A DNA stretch of 64,000 bases, from assembly GCF_011064545.1 (NCBI RefSeq), contig NZ_JAAMFG010000034.1, positions 620,001 through 684,000 on the forward strand, written 5' to 3'. This DNA comes from Wenzhouxiangella sp. XN24. GTDB taxonomy: Bacteria > Pseudomonadota > Gammaproteobacteria > Steroidobacterales > XN24. Positions within the stretch are counted from its first letter, which is position 1; every line of letters begins with the position of its first letter. A program made the translations under genes and the position numbers. Below, in pieces: positions 3,994 through 50,705 of the stretch. Below the pieces are notes generated by a model, which ran no database searches, was not told where the DNA came from, and saw only the letters and a program-made list of their open reading frames with translations.

Positions 3994-5118
3994 TTGTCAC
4001 AAGTTGTTGAATTAACAAAGGAGCTGGTCGCCAGGGCCTCGGTGACGCCGGACGATGCCGGCTGCCAGGAGCTGATGATCGCACGGCTCGAAGCGGTGGG
4101 TTTCAGCGTAGAGAGGATGCGTTTCGGCGAGGTGGACAACTTCTGGGCGCGCCGCGGCACGACGGGTCCGCTGCTGTGTTTCGCCGGCCACACGGACGTC
4201 GTGCCGTCCGGCCCCGAGACCGCCTGGACCTCTCCGCCCTTCGCCCCCACCGAGCGGGACGGCTGCCTTTGGGGCCGGGGCACGGCCGACATGAAAGCCA
4301 GCCTCGCGGCGATGGTCGTGGCCTGCGAGGAGTTCCTCGCCGCGCACCCCGACCCGGCAGGCTCGATCGCCTTTTTGATCACCAGCGATGAAGAAGGCCC
4401 GGCGCAGGACGGCACCCGCGCCGTCATCGAGACGCTCGAGGCGCGCGGCGAGAAGATCGACTGGTGCCTCGTCGGCGAGCCCTCCAGCAAAGAGCGGCTC
4501 GGCGACATGCTGCGGACCGGGCGGCGCGGCTCCCTGTCCGGCGACCTGGTCGTCACCGGCATACAGGGCCACGTCGCTTATCCCGAGACGGCCGTGAACC
4601 CGCTGCACAAGCTCGCGCCCGTGCTCGCCGAGCTGGTTTCCCTCGAGTGGGACGCCGGCAACGACGCGTTCCCCCCCACCAGTTTCCAGCTCACCAACCT
4701 GCATGCCGGCACCGGCTTTCGCAACGTCACGCCCGGCTCCGCCGAGCTGAAATTCAATATCCGCTACTCCACCGAGCAGACTTTCGAAGGCCTGCAGGCG
4801 CGGATCCACGAAGTGCTGGACCGCCACGGCCTGGATTACCGGGTCCAGTGGCGCGATGCCGGGCGGCCTTTCCTGACCCGGCCGGGCGTGTTCCTCGATG
4901 CGGTTCGTGCGGTCGTCCGCGAGGTGACCGGCATCGACCCCGAGCTGTCGACGGGCGGCGGCACCTCGGACGGGCGGTTCATCGCCCCCACGGGCGCCGC
5001 CGTCGTGGAACTCGGGCCGGTCAATGCGAGCATCCACAAGATCGACGAGCATGTGCGGATTGCGGACCTCGAGCCGCTGAAGGACCTTTACCTGGCGCTG
5101 CTCCGGAAGCTGCTCTAG
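3994..5118 (+). CDS. dapE: Succinyl-diaminopimelate desuccinylase DapE
   Basis: Zinc-dependent M20-family hydrolase that removes succinate from N-succinyl-LL-diaminopimelate in lysine and peptidoglycan precursor synthesis. Zinc-site residues are visible: His66 in GHTDVV, Asp99 in GTADMKAS, the Glu133-Glu134 pair in SDEEGP, and a C-terminal His in ASIHKIDEH. At 374 residues it has normal length. The start is a TTG with AAGGA eight bases upstream; the nearby ATGAATTAG runs straight into a stop. It is transcribed away from pstS. The following 350 bases hold no gene, only the first copy of the TA-flanking repeat. Confidence 0.95.
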
Positions 5119-5183: not shown

Positions 5184-5467
5184 TCGACCGCAGGCGCGCG
5201 GCGCCACAGGCCGGCCTGCGCTCAGACAAGGAAAAACTCGCTCGGCCGGCCTGTGACACCCCCCGCCCGCTGCCCGGATCGCCAGGGAGACGCCGACGGT
5301 CGCCCAGCCGACGCCGTAGCGGAACCGGGGCGTCATGGGCGCACTGCGCGAGCTCAGATTTCGCCGAGCGAAGGGCGCCCGTGATGACCCGGATCCGCGG
5401 TCGACCGGAACGAAGGCGCTAAGTGACGACCCGGATCCGCGGTCGAACCGAAACGAAGGCGGATCGA
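5184..5467. repeat. TA-cassette flanking repeat, copy 1 (284 bp)
   Basis: Nearly identical over 284 bases, with no net length change, to 7025-7308. It contains a 12-bp perfect inverted repeat CACAGGCCGGCC (5205-5216 against 5244-5255, 27-nt loop). At its right end are two tandem 42-bp units (5381-5422, 5423-5464) with core GACCCGGATCCGCGGTCGA. It has no convincing reading frame. It sits between dapE and the HigBA cassette. Confidence 0.9.
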
Positions 5468-5470
5468 ACG

Positions 5471-6571
5471 TCAGCTGCAGCGATTTGCTAGCTCAAATCT
5501 ATACCGCACTCGACCATGATGGATTGTGTAAGGAAGCAACCCTTCATGGTGAAGCCTTCCCGTAACAATGCCCGGGCCGATATCAAGGTTTGCAGCAAAT
5601 CGCATAATGGCGTCACGCGAAAAGTCGCCGGCAAGAACGAATTTCTGGAACTCTGCAGGAGGGATAAGAGTGACCTGTGCAAACTTGTCAGCTTCTTCTT
5701 CTTGCTTGCGTCTGCCTGGATGGTGACTTCCGTCTTCCAAAAACGTCGATCGCTTGTCATGCAACAAAATATGTCCAAGCTCGTGGAATAGACTGAACCA
5801 GAAAATATCCGCCCAACTTCCTCGAAGAGACATCATAACTACGGCTCTATCCTTCCCGGACCAAAAGGTGGCGCCGTTCGTATAAGTCTTCGGAAAGTGA
5901 GGGATGACGATCAAGGACACCCCGCACTCGCATAGAAGCGATCTAAGCTCGCTGAAGAACTCACTCGGGTCGTTGCGCTTTGTCAGCTTTCTAATTTCTG
6001 GCAGCGCCTGCTCGAGTCGCTTCTTCGAATACTCTGCACAGCCATCCCGCTTTGAGAGCACCGTACCAGCACGCAACCAAGCCGCTAATGCTTCATGGTT
6101 GAGCCCGTCCTTCGAACCCTGCCGAAAGGCCGGACTGTAATCTCTAGTACCTTGGAGGTTGAAAAGAGAAGAAACTCCGAAAAACGAACGGAGATTTTCC
6201 ACCCGCTCGATCTTTGAATTGGTTTTTTCAACAAGGCCCAGCTTGGCAAGAAGAGCGTAAGGAAATTTCGGAACCAGAACTTCTTCCTTTTTCGCCTCCT
6301 TCCTGTCATTCAAGTTCGCTTGAATCAGGCGAAAATCCGCTTCAAGGCGAGACCAGATGTGCGCCGGAACTCCTACAACTTTCTCGAGCTGTATAGACGT
6401 TTCAGGCGTAATGGCCTTCTCCCCACGAATGATTTCGTTAATGGCCTGCGCGGGCCTTCCCATACGACGCGCCAGCTCGGCCTGATTCAGCTCTAAATCT
6501 GCAAGCACCTCCTCGAGGTACTCACCAGGAGGAATGGCCAAGTCAGACATGAAATGCGTTTCAGTCATCAT
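5471..6571 (-). CDS. higA: HigA-type antitoxin/regulator fused to ImmA/IrrE-like metallopeptidase
   Basis: 366 residues in two parts. Residues about 12-75 form a HigA/VapI-type helix-turn-helix (PPGEYLEEVL, NQAELARRMG, INEIIRGEKAIT). Residues about 150-350 form an ImmA/IrrE-type peptidase domain with the zinc motif HELGH at 263-267. The HTH should bind HigB and repress the operon; the peptidase half could cleave a regulator or the partner, which is inference. It overlaps the end of higB by 11 nt, so the order is toxin first. The base composition is clearly more AT-rich than dapE or dsbB on either side, which suggests transfer. The cassette lies between repeat copies 1 and 2. Confidence 0.85.
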   Translation of the reverse strand: MMTETHFMSDLAIPPGEYLEEVLADLELNQAELARRMGRPAQAINEIIRGEKAITPETSIQLEKVVGVPAHIWSRLEADFRLIQANLNDRKEAKKEEVLVPKFPYALLAKLGLVEKTNSKIERVENLRSFFGVSSLFNLQGTRDYSPAFRQGSKDGLNHEALAAWLRAGTVLSKRDGCAEYSKKRLEQALPEIRKLTKRNDPSEFFSELRSLLCECGVSLIVIPHFPKTYTNGATFWSGKDRAVVMMSLRGSWADIFWFSLFHELGHILLHDKRSTFLEDGSHHPGRRKQEEEADKFAQVTLIPPAEFQKFVLAGDFSRDAIMRFAANLDIGPGIVTGRLHHEGLLPYTIHHGRVRYRFELANRCS

Positions 6572-6863
6572 AGTGTTTGCTCACTTCCTCAATCATGACG
6601 ATGTTCATCATGTCGCCTTCGAGAGTAAAAATAAGGCGATAAAAACCAGTCAAATTTACGGCGTACTGACCACGTCTCTTGCCCTTCAGCTCATGGCATC
6701 GAAGTCCCGGTAGGCACTCAACCTCTTCAAAGGTGTTAGCTGCTTTGATCAGGTTGATCCGCTGGATGTACTTTCGAGCGACATCCTTCCCGAAGGCCTT
6801 AACCGCGTGCTTTGACTCTACAAAGCACTTCGCGAGTTTCTTGGTTCGAAACCTGATCTCCAC
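6561..6863 (-). CDS. higB: HigB-like RelE/ParE-superfamily toxin
   Basis: 100 residues with the HigB pattern: basic N-terminus, the LRCHELKGKRRGQYAVNL segment and a C-terminal VMIEEVSKHYDD. HigB toxins are ribosome-dependent mRNA endonucleases. It comes first in the operon and its stop overlaps the start of the HTH-peptidase antitoxin. The 160 bases upstream to repeat copy 2 should hold the promoter, but I see no clear operator there. Confidence 0.88.
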   Translation of the reverse strand: MEIRFRTKKLAKCFVESKHAVKAFGKDVARKYIQRINLIKAANTFEEVECLPGLRCHELKGKRRGQYAVNLTGFYRLIFTLEGDMMNIVMIEEVSKHYDD

Positions 6864-7024
6864 CGTCTTTGATCCGGTCCTGCATGCTGTCCGCCGGAAT
6901 ATTCACCCCATGGGTGAAGACTTTAGCACAAAGGCGCTCCGAAGTTAGGACAACATTCGGGATTGGAGCGCTAACGCGCTCATCGACCGCACTCAACTGC
7001 ACTCAACCGCAACGGAGACGCGAA

Positions 7025-7308
7025 TCGACCACGGCCGCGCGCCGCCACAGGCCGGCCTGCGCTCAGACAAGGAAAAACTCGCTCGGCCGGCCTGTGACAC
7101 CCCCCGCCCGCTGCCGGGATCGCCAGGGACATGCCGACGGTCGCCCTGTCGATGCCGCAGCGGAGCCGGGGCGTCATGGGCGCACTGAGCGAGCTCAGAT
7201 TTCGCCGAGCGAAGGGCGCCCGTGACGACCCGGAGCCGCGGTCCATCGGAACCAAGGCGCTAAGTGATGACCCGGATCCGCGGTCGAACCGAAACGAAGG
7301 CGGATCGA
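7025..7308. repeat. TA-cassette flanking repeat, copy 2 (284 bp)
   Basis: Same length and order of elements as copy 1, including the CACAGGCCGGCC hairpin (7046-7057 with 7085-7096) and two terminal 42-bp units. Differences from copy 1 are scattered substitutions. It separates the HigBA cassette from the CcdAB cassette. No gene is seen between 6864 and 7346. Confidence 0.9.
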
Positions 7309-7346
7309 CCGCGGCGTCACGGCGCTGAAAAATCCGAATCCTTGGA

Positions 7347-7646
7347 TCAAAAGCCCAGAAACAACATATCCAGCGCCGTGGAGATTTCGTCCTGCTTCTC
7401 AGCAAGGCTGCCAACTCGAGAGCGCAATTCGCCTGCGGGAACAGCAGCCATGTACTGCGTTGCCATTACCAGCTCCTGACCCTCGATGCGAAATACAGGA
7501 TTCAGCCGCTGGGCAGGGGACGGCGCGGAAGATTGGGGCAACAAGGGCACGACAACTCGCGTATTCAAGCCGCTGAGAAGGTCTGACTGAACGTCCAGCA
7601 GATAGCCGGCCTCATCCTCGTTTTTGAAGATGTCAAAACGGGCCAT
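7347..7646 (-). CDS. ccdB: CcdB-like gyrase-poison toxin
   Basis: 99 residues matching CcdB along its length: DVQSDLLSGLNTRVVVPL near the N-terminus, a central PVFRIEGQ segment and TQYMAAVPAGEL. CcdB traps DNA gyrase. The E. coli F-plasmid protein needs a C-terminal Trp-Gly-Ile; here the end is Leu-Gly-Phe, so toxicity cannot be assumed. Start and stop overlap with ccdA as TGATG. It lies between repeat copies 2 and 3 on the same strand as the HigBA cassette. Confidence 0.88.
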   Translation of the reverse strand: MARFDIFKNEDEAGYLLDVQSDLLSGLNTRVVVPLLPQSSAPSPAQRLNPVFRIEGQELVMATQYMAAVPAGELRSRVGSLAEKQDEISTALDMLFLGF

Positions 7647-7891
7647 CAGAATTGACGGTGGCGAGCCAGGGGCAAGCCATTCGCTTCAACGTACGAGTTA
7701 GAGCTTGCCAGTGCTGTGGCATTCTCCTTGAGCCACCTCTCCTGCTTGTGCAGTCTCACGGCCTCGGCGATACCCGCCTCCGCGGCCCGCGACACATTGA
7801 TTCCAAGGGCTTTCGCCTCTTTGAGAAGCGCACTATCCAGCGACAGGTTGGTCGGCTTTCGGGTGGATTTGTCAGCTTCAGTAGCCCGCAT
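7646..7891 (-). CDS. ccdA: CcdA-like antitoxin
   Basis: 81 residues: an N-terminal ribbon-helix-helix (RKPTNLSLDSALLKEAKALG) that should bind operator DNA, and a C-terminal tail (ERWLKENATALASSNSYVEANG) typical of the CcdB-binding, protease-sensitive part of CcdA. First gene of the ccdAB pair, coupled to ccdB by a one-base overlap. No gene is seen between 7892 and 8290; that stretch holds repeat copy 3. Confidence 0.9.
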   Translation of the reverse strand: MRATEADKSTRKPTNLSLDSALLKEAKALGINVSRAAEAGIAEAVRLHKQERWLKENATALASSNSYVEANGLPLARHRQF

Positions 7892-8102
7892 GGTCTAGTC
7901 CTTGCTCACCATCATGCGCCTATCCTATGCCCACATGAAATGCCCATCAAGCATGCATGGCGAGCTCATGCCTCACGCAGGCGAATGCTCCAATTCAGTC
8001 GCCTGAAGAACGAAACAAAGTCGCTGGTCGACCACGCTCGCGCGAGCCAAACCCGCCTCGACGACGCGGATCGACCGCAGCGGCCCGAGCCACGCCTGCC
8101 CT

Positions 8103-8270
8103 GCCGACGCCGCAGCGGAACCGGGGCGTCATGGGCGCACTGAGCGAGCTCAGATTTCGCCGAGCGAAGGGCGCCCGTGATGACCCGGAGCCGCGATCGA
8201 CCGTGATGACCCGGATCCGCGGTCGACCGGAACGAAGGCGCTAAGTGACGACCCGGATCCGCGGTCGACC
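8103..8270. repeat. TA-cassette flanking repeat, copy 3 (truncated)
   Basis: Matches the right-hand part of copies 1 and 2, from CCGACGCCG to the 42-bp units, but lacks the CACAGGCCGGCC hairpin. It has gained a partial extra unit: 8177-8202 (short), 8203-8244 (full), 8245-8270 (short). It ends just before the dsbB stop codon, so the array occupies exactly the dapE-dsbB spacer. Confidence 0.85.
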
Positions 8271-8290
8271 CTGACGGGCCGAGCCGTCGA

Positions 8291-8806
8291 TCAGCGCCCG
8301 ACCGCCCGAAAGTTGTTCCAGAGCGCGACCAGCGCCAGCGGCGTGAGGATGATGAGCATCCACCCGGCCATGCTCAGGCCGAGAAACGTCCAGTCGATCT
8401 TCGCGCAGTCGCCCGAACCCTCGAGCACCATGCCGATCGCCTCCCAGAACGGGAACACGTCCATGATGAAGTCCAGCCCGGGCCCGCACTCGGGCACCTC
8501 GTCCGCCGGCAGGCCCTGCAACCAGACCTGGCGCCAGGCGAAGCCGATGCCCGCCGCCGCGGTGACGGCCGCAAGAACGCCGTAGACCCGCGCGCCGCTG
8601 CGTCCGGGGTTGTGCGCATAGGCGGCCAGCAGGACGAAGCCGAGCGCAAGCACGGCCACCCGCTGGAATACGCACAACGGACACGGTTCCAGCCCGAGCA
8701 CGTGCTCGGCATACATGGCATAGCCCAGCAGCCCGCCGCAGAGCAGCGCGCCGGCCCCGTTCACCATGCGGCGATCGAGGCCGCGCAATCCCGTTCTCTC
8801 AACCAT
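8291..8806 (-). CDS. dsbB: Disulfide bond formation protein DsbB
   Basis: Four-span inner-membrane protein that reoxidises periplasmic DsbA and passes electrons to quinone. The first redox pair is Cys42 and Cys45 (EPCPLC) and the second is Cys107 and Cys134 (ECGPG, GDCAKIDW). At 171 residues it has normal length. Its ATG overlaps the phoU stop by 8 nt (ATGGTTGA), so translation is probably coupled to phoU, an unusual partnership. Confidence 0.93.
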   Translation of the reverse strand: MVERTGLRGLDRRMVNGAGALLCGGLLGYAMYAEHVLGLEPCPLCVFQRVAVLALGFVLLAAYAHNPGRSGARVYGVLAAVTAAAGIGFAWRQVWLQGLPADEVPECGPGLDFIMDVFPFWEAIGMVLEGSGDCAKIDWTFLGLSMAGWMLIILTPLALVALWNNFRAVGR

Positions 8807-42977: not shown

Positions 42978-44012
42978 GCGGGTCGGACCGTGGCAAGTGC
43001 CTGTTGCAAAAAAGAAAAGGGCCGAAAAACAGCCCTCGGGAGACCCTTAGGACGCGATTTACCCCCGTAAATTCGCTTTCTAAGGCAGCCGGGTATATTA
43101 CGCTGAAAAGGTTACTTTTTCACCATTTCTATCAATCGTCCGCGCGGCCGGCCGGATGACGTCTCCCCGTCGCGCTGGAGTAATCGGGCGGCGCCTCGCG
43201 CAGGCAGGACACACCCCACGCCTCGTCAATGGCGCGTGACACGGCCCGCGGGCCGAGATCCCCCTTGACCGTGCGCAGGAATCGCTTGCTCCCGACAGCC
43301 ACACTTTCGGTCCACTCGGGCTGGCGGACCGGCGCACTCTCCCCCAGCACACGTTCGGTCCAGGCCCTGGCGCGACGCCTGAGCGCCTCTGGCGACTGGC
43401 ACCCGACCAGCGCGCACAGCGCCGCGGTGTCGATGATCCGGTAGCGTTGCGGCAGCCGTTGCAACTCGCAATAACCACTCTCCGGCCATTCGAACGGATG
43501 CGCCACCACCCCGGCGCGCACCATGTTCAGGTCGATGTAACTCATGCACCGGAGCAGGTGGCCGTCACTCGCGACCGCGGTCGCGTGATACCGGTCCTGC
43601 CAGAAGGCGCCGCTCCGCTTGCGGCGGTCGTTGTGCTCTTGCCCGGTCCGCCCCGCCACGAGCCGCATGGCCGCGGCGATTTCGCCGTTGCGCTGGTCGC
43701 GCACCAGCAGGTGGATGTGGTTGCAGGTCACGATGTAGTTCAGCACGCACAGTCCATAGCGACGCTGCGCCTCGAACAACCAGTAGAGCCAGCGCCGACG
43801 ATCGATCCGCGCCTTCAGCAGGAATTCGCGCTGGTGGCAGCGCTGGGTGATATGCCAGACGTGGCCGGGGATGAATACGCGGTTGGCGCGCGGCATGGGT
43901 CTTGGTTCCTTACAACGCGATTTCAGGCGCTGTATTTGCATCCTAAGCGCCGATCGCGGTGCTTATGAGGGTCTTTATCGTTAGATTGCATGGAGATAAC
44001 GCGGTCCGACCC
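42978..44012. mobile_element. RAYT-encoding element (E4, about 1035 bp)
   Basis: Bounded by GCGGGTCGGACC (42978-42989) and GGTCCGACCC (44003-44012). Hairpin units lie at 43045-43085 and 43909-43948, 55-56 bases from the ends, in inverted orientation. A single tyrosine-transposase gene lies between. It is the only copy in the window with a transposase, so it is the likely source of mobility for E1, E2, E3 and E5. Confidence 0.85.
43132..43896 (-). CDS. REP-associated tyrosine transposase (RAYT, Y1 family)
   Basis: 254 residues from the ATG at 43896. The Y1 transposase core has the HUH motif as His60 and His62 (CNHIHLLV) and the catalytic Tyr120 in MSYIDLNMVRAG. WHITQRCHQREFL at the start is typical of RAYTs. 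A C-terminal helical extension (about 145-254) may recognise hairpin DNA. An in-frame start 15 codons upstream would begin inside the right hairpin unit, which seems less likely. RAYTs are usually single-copy domesticated enzymes linked to REP palindromes, and all active-site residues are present here. Confidence 0.9.
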   Translation of the reverse strand: MPRANRVFIPGHVWHITQRCHQREFLLKARIDRRRWLYWLFEAQRRYGLCVLNYIVTCNHIHLLVRDQRNGEIAAAMRLVAGRTGQEHNDRRKRSGAFWQDRYHATAVASDGHLLRCMSYIDLNMVRAGVVAHPFEWPESGYCELQRLPQRYRIIDTAALCALVGCQSPEALRRRARAWTERVLGESAPVRQPEWTESVAVGSKRFLRTVKGDLGPRAVSRAIDEAWGVSCLREAPPDYSSATGRRHPAGRADD

Positions 44013-44187: not shown

Positions 44188-44850
44188 ATGAAGAACCTCA
44201 ATCGTATCGCCGCCGCTCTCGCGCTCAGCTTGTTCGGCTTTGCAGCCCATGCGGCGCCGATCATCACCTTCAACAGCGCTGACGCCTCAGATGGCAGCGG
44301 CCTGACGACACCGGTCGCAGGCGCGACGGTCATCGATTTCAACGATGACAGCCTTCTCAACACAAGAGGTCCTGCAGGTTTCTTTGGTCAAGGCGGTGTC
44401 GTAAAAGGGTCGTCGAGCGGCGCATATGCGGCACCCGCCGGCAACACGACGCAGTACCTGTCCGTGGCCCTTGGCCAGCGCGCCGGTTCCCACACCATCA
44501 CTTTCGATACCGGCGTCACGTACAACTACTTCGGCCTTTACTGGGGTTCGATCGACGACTACAACACGCTGTCGTTCTTCAATGGTGCAACCGAAGTGCT
44601 CACGCTCACCGGAGCACAGGTCATCGCCAACCCGAACTTCTTCGGCAACCAGACGGCCGACCCGGCGAACCGCTACGTCAACATCTTCCTGGGCGCCACC
44701 AGCTACGACAAGATCGTGATCAGCACCACGCAGTTCGCCTTCGAGTCCGACAACCACGCGTTCGCGCAGGTGCCGGAGCCTGGCACATTGGCGCTGCTCG
44801 GCCTCGGCCTCATCGGCGCGGGCGCCCTGCGTCGTCGCCGGAGCCAGTAA
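44188..44850 (+). CDS. PEP-CTERM sorting-domain protein 1
   Basis: 220 residues. Signal peptide (ALALSLFGFAAHA), a beta-rich secreted domain with NYFGLYWGSIDDYNTLSFFNG, and the C-terminal sorting signal VPEPGTLALLGLGLIGAGALRRRR (PEP motif, membrane segment, Arg cluster). Exosortase cuts such proteins during export, often for extracellular matrix. The YWGS(I/V)D motif is shared with protein 2, so the two are related. The start at 44188 gives a normal signal peptide. Confidence 0.9.
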   Translation: MKNLNRIAAALALSLFGFAAHAAPIITFNSADASDGSGLTTPVAGATVIDFNDDSLLNTRGPAGFFGQGGVVKGSSSGAYAAPAGNTTQYLSVALGQRAGSHTITFDTGVTYNYFGLYWGSIDDYNTLSFFNGATEVLTLTGAQVIANPNFFGNQTADPANRYVNIFLGATSYDKIVISTTQFAFESDNHAFAQVPEPGTLALLGLGLIGAGALRRRRSQ

Positions 44851-46219: not shown

Positions 46220-46876
46220 ATGAACTTGACTCAGAGATACAAGACTTTCGGCGCGGCAGCGAGCCTTTTGGCATTGTCTGCGTTGGGGACCGGCGTTGCG
46301 TCCGCTGGGCCGATTTTCGTTGACGACACTTCCAGCGGAATCACAGGCGAATACCTTGGCGAGGACTGCATTGCCGCAACCTGCGTACAACTCGGCGACC
46401 GCTACACCGTAAGCGGTGGCGCTGTTATTGCTCCCGCTGAATTCGAGCCCGGCGACTACAAGACTCCCGGGTGGGACTCGTCCGACCCGGACAAGACGTT
46501 GTCATATAACGTGACCAGCAGTAAAAATGTGCCTCCGGGCGCAATCAGTAAGATCGTCATCTCCGACCTGGACGGCGCGTTCGATTTCTACTGGGGATCG
46601 GTGGACTCGTACAACGTGGTGACGTTCTTCTCCGGCGGTAGCAACGTCCTGGCCATCACTGGCACGACGCTGAGTTCTATTGGTGGGGGCACCGCGAACA
46701 ATTTCGGTTTCGATGCCTACGTCAGTTTCGTCGGCAAGTTTGATAAAGTTGAACTCTCAAGCGCCAACGGCGTCGCCTTCGAGGTGGCAACTGCTGTACC
46801 GGAGCCTGGCACACTGGCTCTGTTGGGACTTGGCCTGATCGGCGTTGGCTTCGCGCGTAGACGCGCTGCTGCCTGA
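46220..46876 (+). CDS. PEP-CTERM sorting-domain protein 2
   Basis: 218 residues. Signal peptide ending ...GVASAG, two cysteines (EDCIAATC), the DFYWGSVDSYNVVTFFSG motif also found in protein 1, and C-terminal VPEPGTLALLGLGLIGVGFARRR. GAGGGA lies nine bases before the ATG. Secreted exosortase substrate, probably part of the extracellular matrix. Confidence 0.9.
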   Translation: MNLTQRYKTFGAAASLLALSALGTGVASAGPIFVDDTSSGITGEYLGEDCIAATCVQLGDRYTVSGGAVIAPAEFEPGDYKTPGWDSSDPDKTLSYNVTSSKNVPPGAISKIVISDLDGAFDFYWGSVDSYNVVTFFSGGSNVLAITGTTLSSIGGGTANNFGFDAYVSFVGKFDKVELSSANGVAFEVATAVPEPGTLALLGLGLIGVGFARRRAAA

Positions 46877-47786: not shown

Positions 47787-49709
47787 ATGGCTACCTGGAA
47801 CACACTTCTAAAGTCGCGTTTCACCGCACTGACGGTTGCATTCCTGCTGACGACGCTGAGCGGCTGCGGCAGCGAGAGCGATGACACCGCGGCGGCCGTG
47901 ACGCCGCCGCCGCCAAGCAGCACGACGCCGCCCCCCAGCACGACCCCGCCAATCGATCCCGAGGTCGAAACCCACATCACCGGCAGCGTCGGCGACGGCC
48001 CCATCATCGGCGCCCGCGTCCGCGTCCTCGCCAACACCGGCCTCCTGCTCAGCGAAAGCACCAGCGGCAGCACCGCCGACTACGACGTCAGGATCAAGAC
48101 CCAGGGCAAGCATTACGCACTCACGATTCGCGCCGACCAGGGCACCGACCTCGTCACCGGACTCGCTCCCGATTTCGAACTGGTCGCCGTCCTGCATAGC
48201 CCGTCGAACCGCACCGTCAAGAACCTGAACCCCTTCTCGACGCTGATCTTCGAAGCCGCCCGCATGAACGGCGGCGTCAGCAACGAGACCGTCACTGCCG
48301 CCAGCCACGCCGTCGTCACGCGCTACGGCTTCGGTCTCGACACGGCGGTGATCGCCGATCCCGTCGAGACCCCGATCACCGACGAAAACATCCACATGAT
48401 CGTCCGCTCCAGCGAAACGCTCGGCGAAATGATCCGTCGCACCCGCGATGCCATGACCGCTACCGGCAGCACCATGGACGGGGACGCCATCATGCAGGCC
48501 CTCGCGTCCGACCTGATCGACGGCTGGATCGACGGCATGGGCGGCCTCGAAAGCCGCTCCCGGATCGCCGCGGTCGCCAACGTCGCCAGCGCAGCCGTCC
48601 TGCTCGAGACCATGAGCAACGAATTGCGCGTGTACGACGTGAATGCGACCGACGCGATGGACCAGGCCGTGCGCCAGGTCCGCCCCAACGCCGACCCGGA
48701 CGCCTCGGTCAGCACCCTGCCGATCCCCGCGACGGCGTTCGTCCAGGCCAGCCGCCTGCTGCGCGCTGCACAACAGATCAACAACGATCCGGCCATCGCG
48801 GCGGCCATTTCGGTCATGGACGCGGCCGCACCCGGCACGAGTCCTGTCGACCTCGCCGCGCAGCTCCCCGCCGACCTGCAGACGGCCCTGCGCCAGGCGA
48901 CGCTCGACACCGCATATGCGCCCGAGGCGCAGGTGGACGCGATCAACGCCCAGGCCCGCGTGGCGGCACCTCAAGAACCGACCCCGGAACCGACCCCGGA
49001 ACCGACCCCGGAACCGACCCCGGAACCGACCCCGGAACCGACCCCTGAGCCCGACCCCGAGCCGACCCCTGAGCCCGACCCCGAGCCGACCCCTGAGCCC
49101 GACCCCGAGCCGACTCCTGAGCCTGAGCCCGACCCCGAGCCGATCCCGGATCCGGTCCCTGTCAACCAGGCTCCCCAGATCTCCGGCACGCCTGCGACCA
49201 CCGAGCTGCAGGTCAACGACGGGTGGAACTTCACGCCAAACGCGTCTGACCCCGAGGGCGATCCGCTGACCTTCTCGGTCACCGGTAAGCCCAGGTGGAT
49301 GAGCCTGAACGCCTCGAACGGACACCTGCAGGGCACCCCCGGCGTCGGCGATGTCGGTACCACCGGACCGATCACGATCTCCGTGACCGACGGCGAGTAC
49401 ACCGTCAGCCTCCCGGCATTCACCCTGACGGTGCTTGCGCCGCCGCCGGTCACCGGCTCGGCCACACTGAGCTGGGCCCCGCCGACCGAGCGCGTGGACG
49501 GCTCGGCGATGGGCACGGTCGCCAGTTACAAGATCTACTACAGCCTCAACGGCTCGCAGCTGGACCAGGTCATCACACTGCCCGGCGGCACGACCAGCCA
49601 CCAGATCCAGGACCTCGGTCAGGGCACGTGGTATTTCGCGGTCACCGCCATATGCGCCGATGGTCTCGAAAGCACCAAGTCAGCCGTCGTGAGCAAGACG
49701 ATCCAGTAA
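47787..49709 (+). CDS. Riboswitch-controlled Ig/FN3 lipoprotein with Pro-Glu/Asp linker
   Basis: 640 residues. Lipobox LSGC near residue 27, a Thr/Pro-rich stretch, a helical domain of unknown family (about 55-390), a rigid linker of PEPT and PEPD repeats (about 397-450, encoded by tandem 12- and 18-bp units), a putative-Ig/cadherin-like domain ([13 protein letters not shown]...[16 protein letters not shown]) and a C-terminal fibronectin type III-like domain ([16 protein letters not shown]). Probably a surface adhesin or matrix anchor on the outer membrane. The last two domains are paralogous to the protein at 51201. Expression should follow c-di-GMP. Confidence 0.85.
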
Positions 49710-49958: not shown

Positions 49959-50705
49959 ATGATTCGCAAGTCATCCCTTTTCGCTCTCTCCGCCGTCGCA
50001 GCCCTGGCTGTTGCCGGTGTTGCCCATGCCGGCCCAATTACCTACCAGATCAGCGCCAACGACCTGACTGCTGCCAAGAATGCCGAACTGGCCTTCCTGA
50101 GCACCCTCCAGGCGGGTTACACCACCGAGGATTTCGAAGACGTCGCCGACGTTGACGATAACACCCAATACCTGTCGATCATGACGTCTGTCGGCGAATT
50201 CGTAAGCGAAGTGCCGGGCACGGGCGGGGCGTGCGACAACGTGTCCATGGGCTACGACTGCGATGAGGGCCTCGCCATTCTGAACGGAGACCCCGGCACG
50301 AACCCGTTCTCCGGCCGCTTTAATACCACGGACCCGGGTAACAAGTGGCTCGACAGCTTCGACGCCCAGAAATTCCTGTTCAATGTGGCGGCGGGCAACA
50401 ATGCCGTGGGTTTCTTCATCACAGACCCCAACGATGCTGGCGGGAGCTTCGATTTCGAAACCACTGACGGCACGTTTACCTTGTCGATCGATGACATCTT
50501 CAAAGGCAAGCTTGGCAACAAGGGCGTGTTCTACGTGTCCTTCTTCTCTGAGTTGGACATCGAGAGCATCCGGATTGTCACCAACAACGGGAACGACGGC
50601 TTCGGCGTCGACGACGTTACCGTCGGTCGCGTGCCCGAGCCCGGCACCCTCGCCCTCCTCGGTCTCGGCCTGCTGGGCGCCGGGATGATGCGCCGCCGCG
50701 GCTAG
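49959..50705 (+). CDS. PEP-CTERM sorting-domain protein 3
   Basis: 248 residues. Signal peptide ending VAHAG, a secreted beta-rich domain with one Cys pair (GGACDNVSMGYDCDE), and C-terminal VPEPGTLALLGLGLLGAGMMRRRG. No similarity to proteins 1 and 2 outside the ends is obvious. AAGG lies before the ATG. Confidence 0.9.
   Translation: MIRKSSLFALSAVAALAVAGVAHAGPITYQISANDLTAAKNAELAFLSTLQAGYTTEDFEDVADVDDNTQYLSIMTSVGEFVSEVPGTGGACDNVSMGYDCDEGLAILNGDPGTNPFSGRFNTTDPGNKWLDSFDAQKFLFNVAAGNNAVGFFITDPNDAGGSFDFETTDGTFTLSIDDIFKGKLGNKGVFYVSFFSELDIESIRIVTNNGNDGFGVDDVTVGRVPEPGTLALLGLGLLGAGMMRRRG

What the first reader, a model, noticed from the sequence alone, without database searches (positions are those of the whole stretch)
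5184..8270. Repeat-separated toxin-antitoxin cassette array in the dapE-dsbB spacer
HigBA(ImmA) and CcdAB, both on the minus strand, alternate with three copies of a repeat of up to 284 bp. The cassettes are more AT-rich than the flanks. The layout is like a cassette array, but the repeats do not look like integron attC sites and no integrase is near. Repeats could let cassettes be gained, lost or swapped by recombination.
Basis: partly seen in the sequence, partly recalled or inferred. Interest (0 to 1): 0.75.

Follow-up and report, generated by a model that had tools for sequence, protein, structure and literature searches.

The report
Toxin-antitoxin pairs between gene-end hairpin repeats
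Two toxin-antitoxin gene pairs sit between duplicated copies of a hairpin repeat that this bacterial genus places mostly where two genes run towards each other, so the 'cassette array' looks like a local duplication around a REP-like gene-end repeat and not a toxin-cassette system; the repeat itself is unusual because its loop is conserved while its stem is free to change.

Summary
HigB-HigA(M78) and CcdA-CcdB, minus strand and AT-richer, alternate with two full (93% identical) copies and one truncated copy of a ~287-bp repeat between dapE and dsbB. The reading changes. Each repeat is a pair of ~80-nt hairpins in inverted orientation. A covariance model finds about 92 such hairpins in three congeneric genomes; all 25 stem pairs show compensatory changes, and the apical loop is conserved. 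They lie mostly between convergent genes, often at orthologous positions. The dapE-dsbB spacer has one hairpin pair and no toxin-antitoxin genes in both congeners. Only 1 of 35 HigB/PIN toxins in the genus lies within 3 kb of a hairpin (1.3 expected), no attC core pair is present, and RAYT-type transposases are not flanked by the hairpins. So this is not a toxin-antitoxin cassette system but a REP/BIME-like gene-end repeat, duplicated locally around inserted operons; a second locus shows the same unit-operon-unit layout with an arsenic operon. Recombination between the direct repeats could add or remove operons; direction and mechanism are inferred. The more novel part is the repeat: conserved loop and free stem, the reverse of classical REPs, found in this genus and one other family of the order.

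The parts
3994..5118 (+). dapE (left resident gene, runs towards the repeats)
   Evidence: ORF; relatives by tblastn
5184..5470 (.). repeat unit 1 (full): hairpin A(-) + hairpin B(+)
5189..5269 (-). hairpin A1, loop GAGCGAGTTTTTCCTTGTCTGAGCG, next to the dapE 3' end
   Evidence: cmsearch R1 45.9 bits
5320..5399 (+). hairpin B1, loop GAGCTCAGATTTCGCCGAGC, near the 3' end of the higBA operon
   Evidence: cmsearch R1 86.6 bits
5471..6571 (-). HigA-family antitoxin fused to an M78/ImmA (IrrE) peptidase-like domain
   Evidence: Pfam PF01381 + PF06114; TIGR02607 above cut-off
6561..6863 (-). HigB-like (RelE-like) toxin
   Evidence: Pfam PF05015 5.4e-08
7025..7311 (.). repeat unit 2 (full), 93% identical to unit 1
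7030..7110 (-). hairpin A2; no plus-strand gene ends here, so it looks like a by-product of duplicating the whole unit
   Evidence: cmsearch R1 43 bits
7161..7240 (+). hairpin B2, near the 3' end of ccdAB
   Evidence: cmsearch R1 88.1 bits
7347..7646 (-). CcdB toxin
   Evidence: Pfam PF01845 2.9e-31
7646..7891 (-). CcdA antitoxin
   Evidence: Pfam PF07362 6.7e-26
8027..8271 (.). repeat unit 3 (truncated; left hairpin lost)
   Evidence: alignment
8116..8195 (+). hairpin B3, near the dsbB 3' end
   Evidence: cmsearch R1 86.6 bits
   Evidence: ORF; same neighbour in congeners

Best explanation
The repeat is a genus-level, REP/BIME-like element: two long hairpins in inverted orientation, one at the 3' end of each of two converging genes. 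It most likely acts as a gene-end structure, as RNA (3'-end protection, or termination without a U-run) or as DNA (cruciform or protein site). In this genome the dapE-dsbB unit was duplicated locally around two acquired minus-strand TA operons, giving unit-higBA-unit-ccdAB-unit, with a hairpin near the end of each operon. The direct repeats allow loss or regain of an operon by ordinary homologous recombination. Shown: anatomy, covariation, convergent placement, orthologous single units without TA in two congeners, no general TA link. Inferred: gene-end function, local duplication, the recombination route.
For: Inverted hairpin pairs of one orientation across three genomes. 25 of 25 stem pairs with double changes, 96.3% of cells paired, covariation score 0.715 against 0.064-0.122 for slid controls. 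Convergent spacers 36 of 55 against 35 of 198 background. dapE-dsbB spacer in congeners: one pair, no TA. Array copies are 91-100% alike by segment, while copies elsewhere in the genome are 72-91% over shorter pieces. Second unit-operon-unit case: TPP enzyme - unit - acr3/ars - unit - thrC in G000, one unit and no ars in G002. Almost no T-run after the hairpins: 2 of 92.
Against: No expression data, so the gene-end role is inferred from position. About 19 of 55 scored sites are not called convergent, partly through rough gene calls of my own script. At the ars locus the third congener (G001) has acr3 without any hairpin, so operon gain there cannot be told from loss. Unit 1 and unit 2 differ at 7%, so the duplication is not recent, or the copies evolve fast. 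Sites in the three genomes are partly orthologous, so the enrichment P-value (6e-15) is overstated.
Confidence: 0.7

Rival explanations
1. A dedicated cassette system: the unit is a site-specific recombination site at the 3' end of each operon, as attC is in integrons, and an unknown recombinase swaps TA cassettes.
For: Each minus-strand operon (higBA, ccdAB, dsbB; acr3/ars, thrC) has a structure-conserved palindrome near its 3' end; cassette number differs between congeners.
Against: Most units sit at core-gene ends with no cargo; no attC core pair; 1 of 35 TA toxins near a hairpin against 1.3 expected; hairpin positions are often orthologous, not mobile. An integrase was not searched for genome-wide.
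Confidence: 0.08
2. The hairpin pairs are non-autonomous transposable elements of RAYT/REPIN type (inverted hairpins, G[C/T]AG next to the stem), and separate insertions bracketed the TA genes as a composite unit.
For: Inverted dimers with GCAG/GTAG next to the hairpin in 64 of 92; dispersed copies; Y1 transposase genes in G000 and G001.
Against: No Y1 transposase match in G002, the genome with most hairpins; the Y1 genes of G000/G001 are not flanked by the hairpins; many positions are orthologous; the window copies resemble each other more than other copies.
Confidence: 0.15
3. Chance: the TA operons landed independently in a permissive convergent spacer, and only ordinary tandem duplication is seen; the repeats have no role in operon turnover (compatible with the best explanation's account of the hairpins themselves).
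For: No TA enrichment near hairpins; duplicated hairpins without cargo exist (G000 C35, A plus three B).
Against: Three whole or partial units alternate with two operons, and a second operon has the same layout.
Confidence: 0.3

Closest known systems
REP/BIME palindromic repeats (GTAG- and CGTC-tagged families; PMC3733652)
   Same: Dispersed extragenic palindromes, mostly inverted dimers, partners often with different stems, many between convergent genes and close to both 3' ends; DNA insertion between dimer partners is noted there.
   Different: Stem of about 25 pairs (28-54 bp in G077) instead of 5-13 bp; stem free and loop conserved; tetranucleotide beside the stem mostly GCAG, not GTAG; transposase genes not flanked by the repeat.
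REPINs mobilised by RAYT (TnpA-REP; PMC3116915, PMC8266576; details from general knowledge)
   Same: Inverted pair of hairpins as a unit; short G-rich tetranucleotide beside the hairpin.
   Different: No RAYT linkage; many positions orthologous between species; longer units (about 290-400 bp).
Integron gene-cassette arrays (attC)
   Same: Operon followed by a palindrome whose structure is kept while its sequence varies; TA cassettes are common in chromosomal integrons (general knowledge).
   Different: No attC core motifs; the repeats also serve core genes; no integrase known nearby.
Bidirectional intrinsic terminators of convergent genes (general knowledge)
   Same: Hairpins between convergent genes.
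   Different: No T-tract beyond the hairpin and a conserved loop of about 18-25 nt.

Membership tests
GTAG/CGTC REP superfamilies | GTAG or CGTC tag at one end | tested here: not met
   GCAG in 58 and GTAG in 6 of 92
GTAG/CGTC REP superfamilies | short stem (5-13 bp) characteristic of the family | tested here: not met
   25 paired columns, all with compensatory changes; 28-54 bp in G077
GTAG/CGTC REP superfamilies | inverted dimers in intergenic space, many between convergent genes | tested here: met
RAYT-mobilised REPINs | RAYT gene flanked by the same repeat | tested here: not met
   no Y1 transposase match in G002; no hairpin near the Y1 genes of G000/G001
Integron cassette array | attC core boxes (RYYYAAC / GTTRRRY) | tested here: not met
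Integron cassette array | integron integrase in the genome | not tested
   no genome search was left for it
Intrinsic (U-tract) terminator | T-run after the hairpin in the direction of transcription | tested here: not met
   2 of 92 hairpins; generic scan finds none at the hairpins
HigBA and CcdAB type II TA modules | toxin and antitoxin family domains in adjacent genes | tested here: met
HigBA and CcdAB type II TA modules | toxicity neutralised by the partner | not testable with these tools
   needs expression assays

The most novel reading that the evidence does not exclude
The repeat is a 'conserved-loop, free-stem' palindrome: a loop of about 25 nt (GAGCGAG..TAAGA.TTC..CGAGCGA) is the heritable part and the arms are re-made from local sequence (fold-back copying or template switching), so that the loop spreads among convergent gene ends and builds a new near-perfect palindrome at each, in at least two families of one order.
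Probability: 0.15. Interest if true: 0.8.

Novelty: new variant of a known kind. Interest (0 to 1): 0.45.

Why it matters
It turns an apparent TA cassette array into a testable case of how accessory operons may enter and leave convergent-gene spacers through duplicated gene-end repeats, and it describes a repeat family in which structure and loop, not stem sequence, are what is kept.

Tried and rejected
Integron attC: no core boxes in the units. Known RNA family: only sub-threshold, implausible matches in Rfam. RAYT mobilisation: Y1 genes not flanked by the repeats. General TA link: HigB and PIN toxins genus-wide, 1 of 35 within 3 kb. A second TA cassette array at G000 C28: its repeats are paralogous coding regions, not extragenic repeats. 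Cargo in G002 L132: two separate single hairpins, not one bracketed cargo. Plasmid relatives of HigA(M78) and CcdB exist but are distant (best 49% and 63% identity) and point to no donor. The exact loop pattern was seen in 1 of 369 genomes of the class, a single match taken as chance.

Full report
Check of the observation. Between dapE (3994-5118, plus) and dsbB (8291-8806, minus) lie two full copies of a 287-bp repeat (5184-5470 and 7025-7311, 93%) and a truncated third (about 8027-8271). The conserved core occurs three times in the 64-kb window with none expected by chance. Between the copies lie a HigB-like toxin with a HigA/M78 antitoxin and a CcdA/CcdB pair, all minus strand, in DNA of 48-60% GC against about 62-74% around them.

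What the repeat is. Each full copy holds two hairpins in inverted order, minus then plus. A first alignment of 15 hairpins from the genome and a congener showed compensatory change in 22 of 25 pairs. A covariance model then found 19, 30 and 43 distinct hairpins in the window's genome (G000) and two congeners, G001 (identical hit scores at the same gene pair as Thioalkalivibrio sp. XN8, locus L017, so taken to be that genome) and G002. On 67 aligned hairpins all 25 pairs show changes on both sides, 96.3% of cells are paired and the covariation score is 0.715 against at most 0.122 for slid controls. That alignment was fitted to the model and leans towards it, but the margin is large. The apical loop is the conserved part. 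No Rfam family matches at threshold.

Where it lies. The usual layout is gene(+), hairpin(-), hairpin(+), gene(-). By my own rough gene of 55 scorable sites are convergent, against 35 of 198 neighbouring gene pairs in a 400-kb sample; many loci are orthologous between the three genomes. Hairpins often start within 100 bp of a gene end. There is no T-run beyond them (2 of 92).

The locus in relatives. The dapE-dsbB spacer holds one hairpin pair and no TA genes in XN8 (L017/L175) and in G002 (L135). The window's genome has two and a half units and two TA operons. The three B hairpins resemble each other more than any other copy in the genome, which suggests local duplication. Hairpin A2 serves no plus-strand gene, as expected if whole units were duplicated.

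Is there a TA link? A second locus in G000 (C17, L134) has the same layout with an arsenic operon (acr3-like transporter, an ArsC-like and an ArsR-like reading frame; only the transporter was checked by Pfam) between two units, next to a TPP-enzyme gene and thrC. G002 has one unit and no ars there, and G001 has acr3 but no hairpin, so gain and loss cannot be told apart at that site. In G002 a HicB-HicA pair and a Fic protein lie between the two hairpins of the spacer next to lpxC, where XN8 has a hairpin and no such genes (HicA recognised by reading, not by a search). G001 has a DUF4172-Fic and an RHS/DUF4225 protein between hairpins 7 kb apart. But of 35 HigB and PIN toxins in the three genomes one lies within 3 kb of a hairpin, with 1.3 expected, and five stretches around other TA genes hold no hairpin. 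The repeat is therefore not a TA-specific site.

Mechanism. Most likely the unit is a gene-end element of REP/BIME kind. Each of the three minus-strand transcription units in the spacer (higBA, ccdAB, dsbB) has a B hairpin 71-106 bp beyond its stop codon, and dapE has hairpin A1 70 bp beyond its own. Direct repeats 1 to 2 kb apart would allow deletion or re-insertion of the operon between them by host recombination. This is inference; no junctions were observed.

Comparison. REP dimers of the GTAG and CGTC superfamilies share the dimer form, extragenic placement and convergent preference, and heterodimers are common among them (PMC3733652). They differ in stem length, tag and in what is conserved. 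In G077, of another family in the order, five hairpins share a 25-nt loop and have unrelated stems of 28-54 bp with at most two mismatches. This reverse-of-REP design is the most novel element here. The order scan (246 genomes) found the model at E 1e-6 only in this genus and G077, and of 51 dapE loci from other genomes only XN8 has it. Literature searches found no description of this family; the library holds open-licence papers only.

Limits. Gene calls in the loci are mine and rough; the sites are not independent; E-values of the model are approximate; there are no expression data; an integrase was not searched for genome-wide.

Noticed in passing
L214-L217 (G077): Hairpins with a common 25-nt loop but unrelated near-perfect stems of 28-54 bp in convergent spacers, in another family of the order.
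   Followed up: partly
L223 (G000:C28:250500-270000): TA modules (HigBA-like, several PIN/VapC-like) interleaved with large paralogous proteins starting like AELKRRNVFRV; their coding repeats mimic cassette repeats.
   Followed up: partly
window 43531-43857: Y1 (RAYT-type) transposase gene with no hairpin of this family beside it.
   Followed up: partly
L134 (G000:C17:146000-153500): Arsenic operon between two hairpin units, with 31-48-bp tandem repeats beside and inside the units.
   Followed up: partly
window 48951-49147: 12-bp tandem repeat array (GAACCGACCCCG), which would code for a Glu-Pro-Thr-Pro linker if in frame.
   Followed up: no
window 44770-44838, 46796-46864, 50631-50699: Three similar 69-bp stretches that read like PEP-CTERM sorting signals (VPEPGTLALLGLGL...RRR).
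   Followed up: no
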